Shown here: piece by piece, positions 7,148 through 11,989 of the stretch
Layout: each line of letters starts with the position of its first letter
Numbering within the stretch: position 1 is the first letter of the stretch
NCBI GenBank assembly: GCA_012270555.1
Contig: JAAXIC010000013.1
Span: 1-64,000, forward strand
Direction of reading: 5' to 3'
Length of the DNA: 64,000 bases
From: Chloroflexota bacterium
Lineage (GTDB): Bacteria > Chloroflexota > UBA11872 > VXOZ01
Notes under the pieces: model-generated
Told to the model about the DNA's origin: nothing
The model's input: the letters and a program-made list of their open reading frames with translations, nothing else
The model's database searches: none
Translations under genes and position numbers: made by a program

Positions 7148-7864
7148 CTAGCGCAAGGTCACCAGCACCTCATTGCGGCGAAACCACGGAATGGTGAACG
7201 GTGGATCGTAGGTCGCAATCCTCCAGTCGCCCTGGTGCTCAAGACCCCTTGCCTGTAACCAATCGGCCAATTGGGCCCTTTGGCGCTCTGCGCTCTCGTT
7301 GGAGAGCCTGCCGCTGAAGCGAATGCTGGCGACTTCGTGCTCCTCAATCTGGCGAATGGACACACTCTCGTTGGTGGGAAGCGGCGCCGTCTCGGCCGTA
7401 TAGCCTGCGGGCAGCACAAATGCCATCGTCCAAGCGTCGATCTTCTCCCCGGCCAACCTCCGGCCAGGTGCATCCTCGCTTGACGGCCGCGGCTCCACCA
7501 ATACCGGTACCGTCATAGCCAGCGTTTCCGAAGGGGCCGAACCGGTCGGCTCCACGAGCACCGGCGTCGTCATTTTGACGTTTTCCCGGCTGCGGTTTGC
7601 CCCCGAAATGTAGCGGAACAACGGTCCAAAGGACCCATTCGTCGCCCGGTCAAACGACCCGGCCACTGTGACCTCCGCGAGCACATAGGATTCATATCTG
7701 CGAATCTCGATGTTGCCGTCTTTCAAGACGACTTCATGCGCAGGCTCTTCGTAGGCGCTGCCAAACAGCGAACCGAAGATAAACGACCGCAAGAAATACA
7801 CCCCTGATCCAAGCAAGAGAACAACTATCAGCGCCACGGCCAGACTCCGCTTGACTACCATCAT
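7148..7864 (-). CDS. SOUL-family heme-binding protein, membrane-anchored
   Basis: 238 residues. An N-terminal hydrophobic segment (about 5-27) is a signal anchor or uncleaved signal. The rest is a SOUL domain: IEIRRYESYVLAEV, then NVKMTTPVLVEP with the internally repeated MTVPVLVEP, and at the end ERQRAQLADWLQARGL and ATYDPPFTIPWFRRNEVLV. This is the usual length for bacterial SOUL proteins. The family binds heme or related tetrapyrroles, but the heme ligand cannot be fixed from sequence. It is transcribed singly, facing away from the redoxin gene. Confidence 0.88.
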   Translation of the reverse strand: MMVVKRSLAVALIVVLLLGSGVYFLRSFIFGSLFGSAYEEPAHEVVLKDGNIEIRRYESYVLAEVTVAGSFDRATNGSFGPLFRYISGANRSRENVKMTTPVLVEPTGSAPSETLAMTVPVLVEPRPSSEDAPGRRLAGEKIDAWTMAFVLPAGYTAETAPLPTNESVSIRQIEEHEVASIRFSGRLSNESAERQRAQLADWLQARGLEHQGDWRIATYDPPFTIPWFRRNEVLVTLR

Positions 7865-8011
7865 CCCCTCCCGATTTCACGCACACTTTCGCCTCTATAC
7901 ACTGATCGTATCCGAGGTTCCTGAATTGAATCTGAGTTGTCCGCCGGCCAAACCCGCTTGCGCGTGTCTTGCGCTCATTCAAGTGATCAAGCCGACTGAA
8001 CGCGCGTACAA

Positions 8012-8068
8012 TTGCACTACTTGCCTTGCTCCAGTTTGCTGTATAGCATGGGGCTAACGCTGGATAGG
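8012..8068 (-). other. relic of the tRNA-Val promoter and 5' end (copy 4)
   Basis: On the minus strand, TATACA at 8040-8045 is preceded by a spacer resembling the copy 1 leader (GCGTTAGnCCC then ATGC). After 14 nt, the same distance as in copy 3, comes GGCAAGTAG, which matches the first bases of tRNA-Val (GGGCAAGTAG). Similarity then ends. The -35 box is CCTATC. I read this as a truncated fourth copy of the unit; it may serve as the SOUL gene promoter. Confidence 0.4.
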
Positions 8069-8193
8069 ATCGGTCCAATGAGCGCCGGTTTGCCAACTGC
8101 GCCAAGCAATCCCGGCCAAGGACGAGAAGGCGCACATTGGATTTGCACAGTCACGTTAAGGCGCAGTCACACTGAAACAGAGGGGTTACTATC

Positions 8194-9057
8194 GTGAGCG
8201 TAACACTGGAGCGGCCCGAGGTGGGCACAGTAGCGCCCGATTTCAGCCTGCCGGACGTGTACGGCAAGCGCTGGACGTGGAGCGAGTTTCGGGGCAAGCG
8301 CGTCCTGCTGTACATGTGGGCGTCGTGGTGAGGCTGCCGCGCTCAGTTGCCAGGTTGGCAACAATTCGCGGAGAAGCACGCCGCTGACAACTTCCAGATG
8401 CTCTCCGTAGCCATGGACGGCGGCGGCGTGGAGCAGCCGCGGGCGTTCGTGGAGCAATTCGGCGTGACGTTTCCAACTTTTCTCGACGCCAGCGGGCTCC
8501 TCTTCCGTCTGTACGGTTTTTCGGCCGTGCCGAACGGCGTCTACGTGGACGAAGCGGGCATCATCCGCTTTCAGCTCTTTACCGGCTTCAGCGTCGACCG
8601 CGAGGATGTGGTGCAACAGCTCGAGACGCTGCTGGCGACGCCGTCAGGGGACGTGCCTCCCGCACCGACTGTGGCACAGCAGTCGTTCGAGGTCGAAGTC
8701 TTGCTGGAGCAAGCGGCGGCAAACGGCGACGATGCGGACCTACAGCTTGCCTTGGCAGAGGCCTGCCTGCAAGAGAGCGAGAATGCGCGTGCGGCGGAGG
8801 CTTTCGCGCGCGCATTGGAGCTTAATAGCGAATCCGCCAATGCCGCCTTCGGTCTCGGCACCGCTCTGCATCAACTCGGACAAACGAGTGAAGCGCTGGA
8901 CGCCTGGGGGCGCGCCCTAGAGATCGAACCGGACAACTTTGTCATTCGCAAGCAGATTTGGCGTCTCAAGCACCCGGAGAAGTTCTACCCTGTCGTTGAC
9001 TACGACTGGCAGAAAGTGCAACTCGCGGCAGAGAAAGCTGCGGAAGGCCGGGCATGA
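8194..9057 (+). CDS. redoxin-TPR selenoprotein candidate (in-frame TGA = Sec46)
   Basis: The frame opens at GTG 8194, 8 nt after AGAGGGG, and would give 287 residues if the TGA at 8329-8331 is read through. Residues 1-45 form the start of an AhpC/TSA-thioredoxin fold (GTVAPDFSLPDVYGKRW, VLLYMWASW). The TGA falls exactly at the first redox Cys, giving W-U-G-C-R, and the fold continues without stop through AQLPGWQQFAEKHAAD, VTFPTFLDASGLLFRLYG and VPNGVYVDEAGIIRFQ. The C-terminal part (about 165-270) has TPR-like helices. A perfect hairpin with a GGU loop lies 21 nt after the TGA, within the bacterial SECIS range. No Sec machinery gene is in this window. A nonsense mutation or sequence error is the alternative. 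Confidence 0.75.
8332..8365 (+). promoter_or_regulatory. candidate bacterial SECIS element
   Basis: Directly after the in-frame TGA, GTTGCCA (8346-8352), loop GGT (8353-8355) and TGGCAAC (8356-8362) form a perfect 7-bp stem. The loop starts 21 nt after the TGA and begins with GG. Bacterial SECIS elements typically place an apical loop with an early G 16-37 nt downstream of the UGA. Confidence 0.65.
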
Positions 9058-9466
9058 ACCTGCGAAGCAGACGCTGGTTTTGCACCCCGTTACTTCCCCG
9101 AAAGTGAGAACCTAGGGGCAAGAGAAGATGGATTCCGGCTTTCGCCGGAATGACGAAGGTTGGCGTTCTGTTTTCATGGTAATCACCATGGCCGTCTGTC
9201 GGCCACACAAGGGAATGAAATGAACGCACATCCTCCGTTCGTGCTGAGCGTGTCGAAGCATGAACGGAGGGAGAAGTGTCGAAAGCTGTCAATCGCTTCC
9301 GCCGTTCACCCTTCGACGATGCTCAGGGCGAACGGCTTGGTCACACTATTTTCATGGTGATCGCGGATCGGGGAGTTTCTCCATTTGACAGGGGCTTTTA
9401 GGTACTTTTCGTTTGTTGTGAGGCTCACTTCCGCAGGCGATTTTGCGTGCAATGAGGAACTAGCGC
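9058..9466. repeat. intergenic region with palindromic dispersed repeats
   Basis: A perfect stem ATTCCGGC-TTTC-GCCGGAAT lies at 9132-9151; a close relative lies at 47554-47573. At 9236-9334 two facing repeats (TTCGTGCTGAGCGTGTCGAAG and CCTTCGACGATGCTCAGGG) form an inverted pair like that at 33705-33816. Both are REP-like and noncoding. Confidence 0.65.
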
Positions 9467-10720
9467 ATGGCGTGGGGGTTGCTGGATAGGTTCAGGCGGC
9501 CCAAGTGGCTGCTCGACCGCATCTTGCCGGTCGCTGAGCACGTCGCCGCAAGCGATAATGGGGCGCTGCCCGCGCTCCTGATAGACACGCTGCACGAGCA
9601 ATTCGGCGCGCAGCGCGTGTGCATCCACTTTGCCGATCCCGGCATGCTGTCCCCCAAGACACGCGATAGCTTTGTCGCCGCTTGCCCCGCTGCCTCTGCC
9701 AACGCCACGGAAGCAGCCAAGGGTGCGTTAGCCGAGGCAGGGTTTTGGCAGTACGCACTTACGTCGAGTAAGCCGGTCACCGCCGCAACCGCGCCCGCCG
9801 CCATACAGGCTGCACTCCGTCCAGTCCTCACAGCCGCCGGTGTGCGCGACGCAGTTGCGATTCCCCTCATCTACAGGGGTGACGTCTATGCCGTGGTGAA
9901 TCTCTACTTCAAACGCTCGGTGCCGTCTCAGCTTGCCACTGCGGAAGACACCTTGCAGAGCATTCGCCTGCTCGGAAACCTCGTGTATGGTGCTCTGCTG
10001 CAACAATATCACAGGGGCATGCTGCAACAAGAGGATTCAATAACCCTTGCCCTGGCCCAGGCGATAGCGACTAGGGACGGCTATGCCGACGGCCATGTCG
10101 TGCGCGTGTGTGCGCTGGCGGTGGCACTGGGTGAAGCGGCAGGGTTGAGCCGCAACGCACAAGAGGCGGTGCGCAAAGGAGCGATGTTGCGGGACATCGG
10201 CAAGGTGCATGTCCCGGACTACATCCTCCAGAAACCCGGCCCGCTCGATGCCGCAGAACGCACGCTCGTCCATGAACATCCGGTTACGGGCGCGCGCATG
10301 CTGCTGGAAGGCGATTTCGTCGCAGACGCCGATTTCATCGCAGACGCCGACTTCGTCGCAGACGCCGGCCATGGTGTTGAATCAGCCAGCCGGACGCTCC
10401 CCTTAGTTGCCTCCATTGTCCGCAGCCACCATGAGCGGCTCGACGGTTCCGGCTATCCCGATGGGCTAGCGGGATCAGCCGTGCCGGTGCTCGCCCGCAT
10501 CGTTGCGATTGCAGACGTCTATGCAGCGCTGGTAGCGGACCGTCCGTACCGCGCCGCGTTGCCGGCGCCTCGCGCCGCGGAGGTGCTTATGGATATGGCT
10601 GGCCCCAAACTCGACGCGGATTTGATCTCGCTCTTTCTTTCGCGCGATATTCCCGCGGTCGATTTGTCCGATAGTTCCGAACAGCCTGCTCAGACCACTG
10701 TTGCTACCACCGCAATCTAG
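9467..10720 (+). CDS. GAF/HD-GYP-domain protein with altered HD signature
   Basis: 417 residues. About 35-180 looks like a GAF-type sensor domain (AIPLIYRGDVYAVVNLYFK). About 190-400 is an HD-GYP domain, the family that hydrolyses cyclic di-GMP: DGHVVRV (His210), VPDYILQKPGPL, EHPVTGARML, HHERLDGSGYP (321-331) and DVYAALVADRPYR. The defining HD pair is changed: LRDIGKV at 241-247 has Arg242 where the metal-binding His is expected, so catalysis may be lost. After EGD there is an insert of three 18-bp direct repeats (10316-10369) coding for FVADAD-FIADAD-FVADAG. No membrane segment is seen. Confidence 0.85.
   Translation: MAWGLLDRFRRPKWLLDRILPVAEHVAASDNGALPALLIDTLHEQFGAQRVCIHFADPGMLSPKTRDSFVAACPAASANATEAAKGALAEAGFWQYALTSSKPVTAATAPAAIQAALRPVLTAAGVRDAVAIPLIYRGDVYAVVNLYFKRSVPSQLATAEDTLQSIRLLGNLVYGALLQQYHRGMLQQEDSITLALAQAIATRDGYADGHVVRVCALAVALGEAAGLSRNAQEAVRKGAMLRDIGKVHVPDYILQKPGPLDAAERTLVHEHPVTGARMLLEGDFVADADFIADADFVADAGHGVESASRTLPLVASIVRSHHERLDGSGYPDGLAGSAVPVLARIVAIADVYAALVADRPYRAALPAPRAAEVLMDMAGPKLDADLISLFLSRDIPAVDLSDSSEQPAQTTVATTAI
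10316..10369 (+). repeat. three tandem 18-bp in-frame repeats in the HD-GYP gene
   Basis: Units at 10316-10333, 10334-10351 and 10352-10369 differ at only a few bases (consensus TTCGTCGCAGACGCCGAC) and code for F(V/I)ADA(D/G). They lie in the loop after the HPVTGARML motif. Confidence 0.85.
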
Positions 10721-10777
10721 AATTTTGACTGCCCGCGATAGCTTGCCGGTTTTCTTCGGGCCCGGCTGCAAAATTTC

Positions 10778-11989
10778 TTATGCCGCATCCGTTCCCTGCC
10801 GCGCGCGTCTGAAGGCAAAATGCGTTAAGAACGGCATGACGAGCGCGATTGGTACAAGGCTCAACATGGCGATCCGAAACGAAAGGTTTTCCGCCAAGAC
10901 ACCAATGACATAGGGTGGAAGCAGGCCGCCAAGCGCCGCGCCAAGCAAGAGCACAATGGAAACCGTGCCGGGCCGGCGAGGAAACCGCTGGAGAGCCACC
11001 GCAAACATGGTCGGAAACACCGGGGCCAGGCACAAGCCGAGCAAAAAGACCGCCGCATAGATTACGAGCACGGAAGGCGCCAATCCGACCACGAGAATCA
11101 AGGGTGCGCTCGCAATCAAAGGAATCTGCATGATCTGTTCGGTCGTCAGACGGCGGCTCAGCCACACTATTGCCAGCCTGCCCAGGAAGATCGCTCCCCA
11201 AAACAGAGAGACAAGCACCGTGCTCTGCCCATAGGGCTCCTGAAAAACTTCGGTGACGTACGTCACACCCCAGCCGATAAGTGAGACTTCTACCCAGATG
11301 TAGAGTACAAGCACAGCCGTAATCATCGTGATCAAGCCGTTGCGCGCCAAGGGGATGACGTTATCGCGGCTCAATCGCTCGATGCTGGCAGCTTGCGGAA
11401 GCTGGACGCGAAAGGTGAGGGGCAAACAGGCGAAACCAAGCAGTCCAATGGCTATCATGGGCAGGCGCCAATTGACATCCAAAGACAAGCCAATGAGCAA
11501 AGGGCTGAGAACGGCGCTCAGTCCAAAGAACATGTGCAAGCGATTGAGATCAGCCACGCGATCACCACTGCTCGCATCTGAAGTAGTCACATTAGTAATT
11601 ATGTCAATACAGCCCAGTCCTGCTCCCGTAAAGAACATAATCCCAGCCATTACGGTCCAATGCGGCGCTAGACCCCAGCCCAAATAGCCGAGTCCAAGCA
11701 TGAGGCTAGTGCCTACCAAGACCGGTCGCCGACCATAGCTGTCGACAACGTACCCTGCAATCATGACCGCCAAGGCAAAACCCGCCGTCGCCAGCGGAAA
11801 GACTATGCCTACGCTCGCGACACTCAGCGAGAACTCGTTACGCATGGCCGGCAAGGCGGGACCGATAAGGTTCCAGCCAAGCCCCATGAGGATGACGAGC
11901 GCGTAGTTCAAGAGAGACAAGAGGCGGTAGCTGGGCGCCTTCTCTCGGGCAATCTCTGTGGGTAACGTTGGTGCGGCTGGCTTTAGCAT
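10778..11989 (-). CDS. MFS transporter
   Basis: 403 residues with about 12 hydrophobic segments, a typical major facilitator protein. Motif A appears as GYVVDSYGRRPVLVG between helices 2 and 3. N-terminal LLNYALVILMGLGWNLIGPALPAMRNEF is the usual first helix and loop. The second half repeats the fold (GWGVTYVTEVFQEPYG, FLGRLAIVWLSRRL). No substrate can be assigned; it resembles sugar or drug transporters of the FucP/YfkF type only in general shape. It is convergent with the HD-GYP gene and alone. Confidence 0.88.
   Translation of the reverse strand: MLKPAAPTLPTEIAREKAPSYRLLSLLNYALVILMGLGWNLIGPALPAMRNEFSLSVASVGIVFPLATAGFALAVMIAGYVVDSYGRRPVLVGTSLMLGLGYLGWGLAPHWTVMAGIMFFTGAGLGCIDIITNVTTSDASSGDRVADLNRLHMFFGLSAVLSPLLIGLSLDVNWRLPMIAIGLLGFACLPLTFRVQLPQAASIERLSRDNVIPLARNGLITMITAVLVLYIWVEVSLIGWGVTYVTEVFQEPYGQSTVLVSLFWGAIFLGRLAIVWLSRRLTTEQIMQIPLIASAPLILVVGLAPSVLVIYAAVFLLGLCLAPVFPTMFAVALQRFPRRPGTVSIVLLLGAALGGLLPPYVIGVLAENLSFRIAMLSLVPIALVMPFLTHFAFRRARQGTDAA

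What the first reader, a model, noticed from the sequence alone, without database searches (positions are those of the whole stretch)
8194..9057. In-frame TGA and a hairpin suggest a new selenoprotein: redoxin-TPR with W-U-G-C-R site
A TGA lies exactly at the first redox Cys of a redoxin (MWASW-U-GCRAQLPGW). Reading frame and family resemblance continue for 241 more codons. A perfect stem GTTGCCA/TGGCAAC with loop GGT starts 15 nt after the TGA, and its loop begins 22 nt after it, in the normal range for bacterial SECIS. The start GTG has a good ribosome site, so the gene is read from upstream. A random nonsense mutation would rarely hit the catalytic Cys and be followed by such a hairpin. The Sec machinery is not in this window. 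Redox proteins are the usual selenoprotein class.
Basis: partly seen in the sequence, partly recalled or inferred. Interest (0 to 1): 0.85.

Follow-up and report, generated by a model that had tools for sequence, protein, structure and literature searches.

The report
Selenocysteine redoxin-TPR protein, UGC-motif family
This bacterial (Chloroflexota) gene almost certainly reads an internal stop codon as the rare amino acid selenocysteine at the active site of a thioredoxin-like enzyme; it is a real selenoprotein, but of a kind that has already been catalogued, and no protein-level evidence was available here.

Summary
The ORF at 8194-9057 (GTG start) is interrupted once, by TGA at 8329-8331, in the active-site motif MWASW-U-GCRAQLPGWQ. 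The genome has the full Sec kit: tRNA-Sec(UCA), selA, selB and selD, and selD itself carries an in-frame TGA. All 24 relatives aligned with the window (Chloroflexota) have TGA at this codon. A pattern allowing any TGN codon there found 24 motif sites in 400 genomes, all TGA and none Cys or Trp. Purifying selection is strong on both sides of the TGA. The downstream hairpin meets the published bacterial SECIS rules, and its five core pairs hold in 28/28 sequences, although the LPxWQ amino acids largely impose it. So the selenoprotein reading is supported. "New" is only partly right: UGC-containing Prx/TlpA-like selenoproteins were listed in 2008 and in a 2026 review, and NCBIfam has NF041054 (ResA-like WAxxUGC). 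This protein scores 153 bits there against a cut-off of 300: a relative outside the curated long form. The U-x-C motif is one residue shorter than the CxxC of Cys relatives, so "exactly at the first redox Cys" is approximate. Function inferred: cytosolic Sec-dependent thiol:disulfide oxidoreductase with a TPR tail. No protein data.

The parts
8194..9057 (+). whole selenoprotein gene (287 residues with Sec46), GTG start to TGA stop
   Evidence: start codon (GTG/ATG) conserved 45 codons before the TGA in all genus members
8179..8186 (+). likely ribosome-binding region CAGAGGGG, 7 nt before GTG
   Evidence: sequence inspection
8221..8571 (+). AhpC-TSA/redoxin (TlpA/ResA-like thioredoxin fold) domain, residues 10-126
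   Evidence: Pfam PF00578 1.8e-19; AF2 model pLDDT 91 and Foldseek to 3kcm, 3gl3, ResA
8329..8331 (+). in-frame TGA = Sec46 codon
   Evidence: invariant in 25 aligned sequences and in 24/24 TGN pattern sites
8335..8337 (+). Cys48 codon, partner of Sec46 in U-x-C
   Evidence: invariant column in A1
8346..8362 (+). apical stem-loop of putative bacterial SECIS: GTTGCCA-GGT-TGGCAAC
   Evidence: meets the bSECIS model given in PMC13188914
8337..8371 (+). extended SECIS-like fold including lower stem CCGCG/CGCGG
   Evidence: MFE fold; lower stem varies among relatives
8836..8937 (+). TPR repeat (residues 215-248) in a helical C-terminal domain (residues about 165-286)
   Evidence: Pfam PF00515 1.2e-9; AF2 helices 165-286

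Best explanation
The gene encodes a selenoprotein of the UGC-containing (WAxxUGC) TlpA/ResA-like family. SelB brings Sec-tRNA-Sec(UCA) to the UGA at codon 46, helped by the hairpin whose GGU loop lies 21 nt downstream, so the ribosome inserts selenocysteine and goes on to the TGA at 9055. The product has a thioredoxin-fold domain with Sec46-Gly-Cys48 at the start of its active-site helix and a C-terminal TPR helical domain. Inferred: Sec46 attacks a disulfide or oxidised substrate, Cys48 resolves the selenenyl-sulfide, and the TPR tail binds a partner protein in the cytosol (no signal peptide is evident by eye). Shown computationally: reading frame, conserved TGA, Sec machinery, fold, selection. 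Not shown: Sec incorporation, substrate, reductant.
For: tRNA-Sec over the cut-off at C15:21403 with anticodon TCA; selB 377.6 bits; selA 571.8 bits; selD 381.6 bits with its own in-frame TGA. TGA in all 25 aligned sequences, with the two Trp, Sec, Cys, Arg, Leu, Pro and Trp of WxxW-U-x-CRxxLPxW invariant. A TGN pattern over 400 genomes gave 24 sites, all TGA; the reversed control pattern gave none. Between genus members at clear distance dN is about 0.05-0.18 and dS about 0.3-2.5 on both sides of the TGA. Core hairpin pairs 28/28, and the closing pair 18-34 occurs as G-C, C-G and U-A. AF2 pLDDT 91, U46 directly before helix 47-61; nearest folds are thioredoxin-family protein 3kcm, DsbE-like 3gl3 and ResA.
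Against: The hairpin is only slightly more stable than synonymous-codon shuffles (mean z about -0.9; not significant in the window sequence alone), and no Rfam SECIS family matches. tRNA-Sec is so common in the phylum (304/400) that co-occurrence (20 of 23 carrier genomes) is not statistically telling, and three carrier drafts lack a convincing tRNA-Sec; all three are fragmented, and one of them has a SelB over the cut-off. No protein-level data.
Confidence: 0.95

Rival explanations
1. The TGA is a sequencing or assembly error or a recent nonsense mutation in an ordinary redoxin pseudogene.
For: The genome is a draft of 56 contigs; single-base errors occur in such assemblies.
Against: TGA is invariant in separately assembled relatives down to about 30% protein identity, with low dN/dS on both sides and no other frame damage.
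Confidence: 0.01
2. TGA is reassigned genome-wide (for example to Trp), so the codon is simply W.
For: TGA is preceded by a conserved Trp codon; TGA-to-Trp recoding exists in some bacteria (general knowledge).
Against: The window gene and several other aligned members end in TGA where other relatives end in TAA/TAG. The genome has a tRNA-Sec(UCA) and selA/B/D. The in-frame TGAs seen are in redox proteins and SelD. No TGG occurs at the codon in any of 24 sites.
Confidence: 0.01
3. Translation stops at the TGA and restarts just downstream (for example TTG at 8347), making a 45-residue peptide and a shortened redoxin-TPR protein.
For: A mechanical ORF of 236 aa starts at TTG 8347, and annotation pipelines would probably call that.
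Against: The upstream 45 codons are under purifying selection as the first strands of the same redoxin fold, which would be split. TTG is not kept as a start (many relatives have CTG). A plain stop would be free to vary to TAA/TAG and none of the 25 aligned members does.
Confidence: 0.02
4. The conserved hairpin is only a by-product of the LPxWQ peptide, and Sec insertion relies on another or looser signal.
For: Synonymous-shuffle control: mean z about -0.9, individual fractions mostly 0.1-0.5.
Against: The closing pair outside LPxWQ covaries (G-C, C-G, U-A), loop features match the bSECIS rules in most members, and the W of LPxW is invariant only in the Sec family, not in CxxC relatives, so the peptide may itself be shaped by the RNA.
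Confidence: 0.2

Closest known systems
NCBIfam NF041054 WAxxUGC_long (ResA-like WAxxUGC motif-containing protein)
   Same: Same U-G-C motif and redoxin domain; the profile aligns over residues 12-263 including the C-terminal helical part (E 1.3e-44).
   Different: Scores 153 bits against a 300 cut-off; lacks the roughly 70-residue N-terminal extension and the central insert of the long form (for example L051 572 bits, L053 560 bits).
UGC-containing Prx-like protein (GOS 2008, 46 sequences; PMC2398784) / UGC-containing TlpA disulfide reductase family protein (cd02966, MDE0950781.1; PMC13188914)
   Same: pfam00578-type domain with a UGC Sec motif.
   Different: No sequence comparison with the published representatives was possible here; a TPR domain is not mentioned in the passages read; the 2008 table counts 855 Cys homologues whereas no Cys form of this motif appeared in 400 Chloroflexota genomes.
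ResA / TlpA / DsbE (CcmG) thiol-disulfide oxidoreductases
   Same: Fold and domain family.
   Different: CxxC instead of U-x-C; usually exported or membrane-anchored, no TPR tail, no Sec (general knowledge).

Membership tests
Bacterial selenoprotein | In-frame UGA with coding frame and homology continuing on both sides | tested here: met
Bacterial selenoprotein | Sec machinery (tRNA-Sec, SelA, SelB, SelD) in the same genome | tested here: met
Bacterial selenoprotein | bSECIS: upper stem 4-16 bp, loop 3-9 nt, G in first two loop positions, 16-37 nt from UGA | tested here: met
   7 bp, GGU, 21 nt (rules from PMC13188914); function of the hairpin untested
Bacterial selenoprotein | Sec actually present in the protein | not testable with these tools
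   needs mass spectrometry or 75Se
UGC-containing Prx-like/TlpA selenoprotein family (literature) | pfam00578/cd02966-type domain with U-G-C motif | tested here: met
   definitions
NF041054 WAxxUGC_long equivalog | score at or above the curated 300 bits, full-length 354 positions | tested here: not met
   153 bits, positions 82-324
TlpA/ResA thiol:disulfide oxidoreductase | CxxC (or UxxC) active site | tested here: not met
   U-x-C, one residue shorter
TlpA/ResA thiol:disulfide oxidoreductase | thioredoxin fold of the AhpC-TSA/redoxin type | tested here: met

The most novel reading that the evidence does not exclude
A Sec-obligate lineage of TPR-fused redoxins in Chloroflexota, in which the Sec site has drifted to a U-x-C motif that no Cys version occupies, and in which the invariant LPxW(Q) peptide after the active site is kept because its codons form the SECIS hairpin (RNA signal shaping protein sequence).
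Probability: 0.4. Interest if true: 0.5.

Novelty: new member of a known kind. Interest (0 to 1): 0.35.

Why it matters
It adds a well-supported, probably mis-annotated selenoprotein from uncultured Chloroflexota and shows a short subfamily that falls below the curated NCBIfam cut-off. The family appears to have no Cys form in the phylum sampled, which is uncommon for selenoproteins and makes the question of why Sec is needed in a U-x-C site testable.

Tried and rejected
First TGN pattern had two spacing errors of mine and found nothing even in the window's own genome; discarded, corrected as after a test on fetched loci. Single-sequence hairpin z-scores (about -1.7 to -2 in most of those folded, but +0.2 for L044) overstated the case: with the protein held fixed the excess is small. 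Presence of tRNA-Sec versus presence of the gene: not significant because Sec use is widespread in the phylum (Fisher P 0.31). Rfam at low threshold over 8300-8420: nothing. Plasmid search: only low-identity partial matches, the listed ones annotated as TlpA-like proteins or peroxiredoxin. Gene neighbourhood: conserved only within the genus, so no functional partner suggested. A paper search for the term WAxxUGC found none.

Full report
What is there. The frame at 8194-9057 starts with GTG after CAGAGGGG, runs 45 codons, meets TGA at 8329-8331, and runs 241 more codons to a TGA at 9055-9057. Read through, it gives a 287-residue protein: an AhpC-TSA/redoxin domain (residues 10-126, E 1.8e-19) that spans the TGA, then a helical domain with a TPR repeat (residues 215-248, E 1.2e-9).

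Sec machinery. In the same genome (G000, 97% complete, 56 contigs) there is one tRNA-Sec over the Rfam cut-off with anticodon UCA, selB at 377.6 bits, selA at 571.8 bits and selD at 381.6 bits. The selD gene has an in-frame TGA near its start, and a second TlpA-like redoxin reads WTYT-U-PVC. The organism therefore very likely makes Sec proteins.

Conservation. One scan of species genomes gave relatives with TGA at the same codon; a search of 400 genomes of the phylum gave more. In an alignment of 25 sequences (window plus 24), including relatives of only about 30% identity, U46, C48, R49, W42, W45, L52, P53 and W55 are invariant. A DNA pattern for W[A/G]xW-TGN-xCRxxLPxW, free to find TGA, TGC, TGT or TGG, found 24 sites in 23 of the 400 genomes; all 24 are TGA and the control pattern found none. 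Between members of the genus at clear distance dN is about 0.05-0.18 and dS about 0.3-2.5, both before and after the TGA. An error, a pseudogene and reassignment to Trp do not fit this; TGA is also the normal terminator of this gene and of several other aligned members.

Relation to Cys relatives. The nearest Cys proteins in the phylum are ordinary TlpA/ResA-like proteins with CxxC. The Sec family lacks one residue (U-x-C), so the alignment of U to the first Cys needs a gap. On a tree of the redoxin domain the 24 Sec sequences fall on one side of a supported branch (98/96). No Cys form of the Sec family itself was seen.

Hairpin. Stem GTTGCCA/TGGCAAC with loop GGU lies 21 nt after the TGA and fits the published bacterial SECIS model (stem 4-16 bp, loop 3-9 nt, G in the first two loop positions, 16-37 nt spacing; PMC13188914). 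Ten of 862 TGAs on the window's + strand have a stem this good. Across 28 distinct sequences five core pairs hold in all, and the outer pair appears as G-C, C-G and U-A, with five sequences unpaired there. Yet when the protein is held fixed and codons are redrawn, the real hairpins are only a little more stable (mean z about -0.9, nearly all negative). The reason is that Leu-Pro-x-Trp-Gln codons are nearly self-complementary. Since the Trp is invariant here but absent from CxxC relatives, the peptide may be kept partly for the RNA; that is inference.

Structure. AlphaFold2 on the family alignment (mean pLDDT 91, pTM 0.68) gives a thioredoxin fold with residue 46 directly before the active-site helix 47-61, then a helical tail. 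Foldseek places it with a thioredoxin-family protein (3kcm), a DsbE-like protein (3gl3) and ResA; the profile search agrees. No signal peptide is evident from the sequence (by eye, no predictor was run), so a cytosolic place is inferred.

Known or new. NCBIfam NF041054 is named ResA-like WAxxUGC motif-containing protein; the window protein matches at 1.3e-44 but at 153 bits against a cut-off of 300, while two long-form members from other Chloroflexota families score 560 and 572. The literature lists "Prx-like (UGC-containing)" with 46 sequences in the 2008 ocean survey (PMC2398784), and "UGC-containing TlpA disulfide reductase family protein" in a 2026 review (PMC13188914). So the kind is known. 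This is a member of a shorter subfamily outside the curated model, and papers on this subfamily in Chloroflexota were not found in the searches made.

Verdict. A real selenoprotein gene, confidence 0.95; its enzymatic role is inferred from family only.

Noticed in passing
L030:1531-1533 (own genome C48, selD): selD carries an in-frame TGA in its N-terminal motif, so SelD is probably itself a Sec protein here.
   Followed up: partly
L037 (own genome C17:140539-140895, - strand): Second TlpA-like redoxin with in-frame TGA in a WTYT-U-PVC (UxxC) motif.
   Followed up: partly
L048, L049, L050 C-termini: Relatives in three other families carry a C-terminal CGPDGC or CGPSGC tail that the window protein lacks; possible extra redox pair.
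   Followed up: no
window 7148-11989: Gene order (238-aa protein that looks like a SOUL heme-binding protein, Sec redoxin, HD-GYP-like protein, MFS-like transporter; names by eye) is wholly or partly seen around the gene in the genus relatives but not in distant ones.
   Followed up: partly
400 phylum genomes: tRNA-Sec over the Rfam cut-off is found in 304 of 400 Chloroflexota genomes sampled, so Sec use looks very common in this phylum.
   Followed up: no
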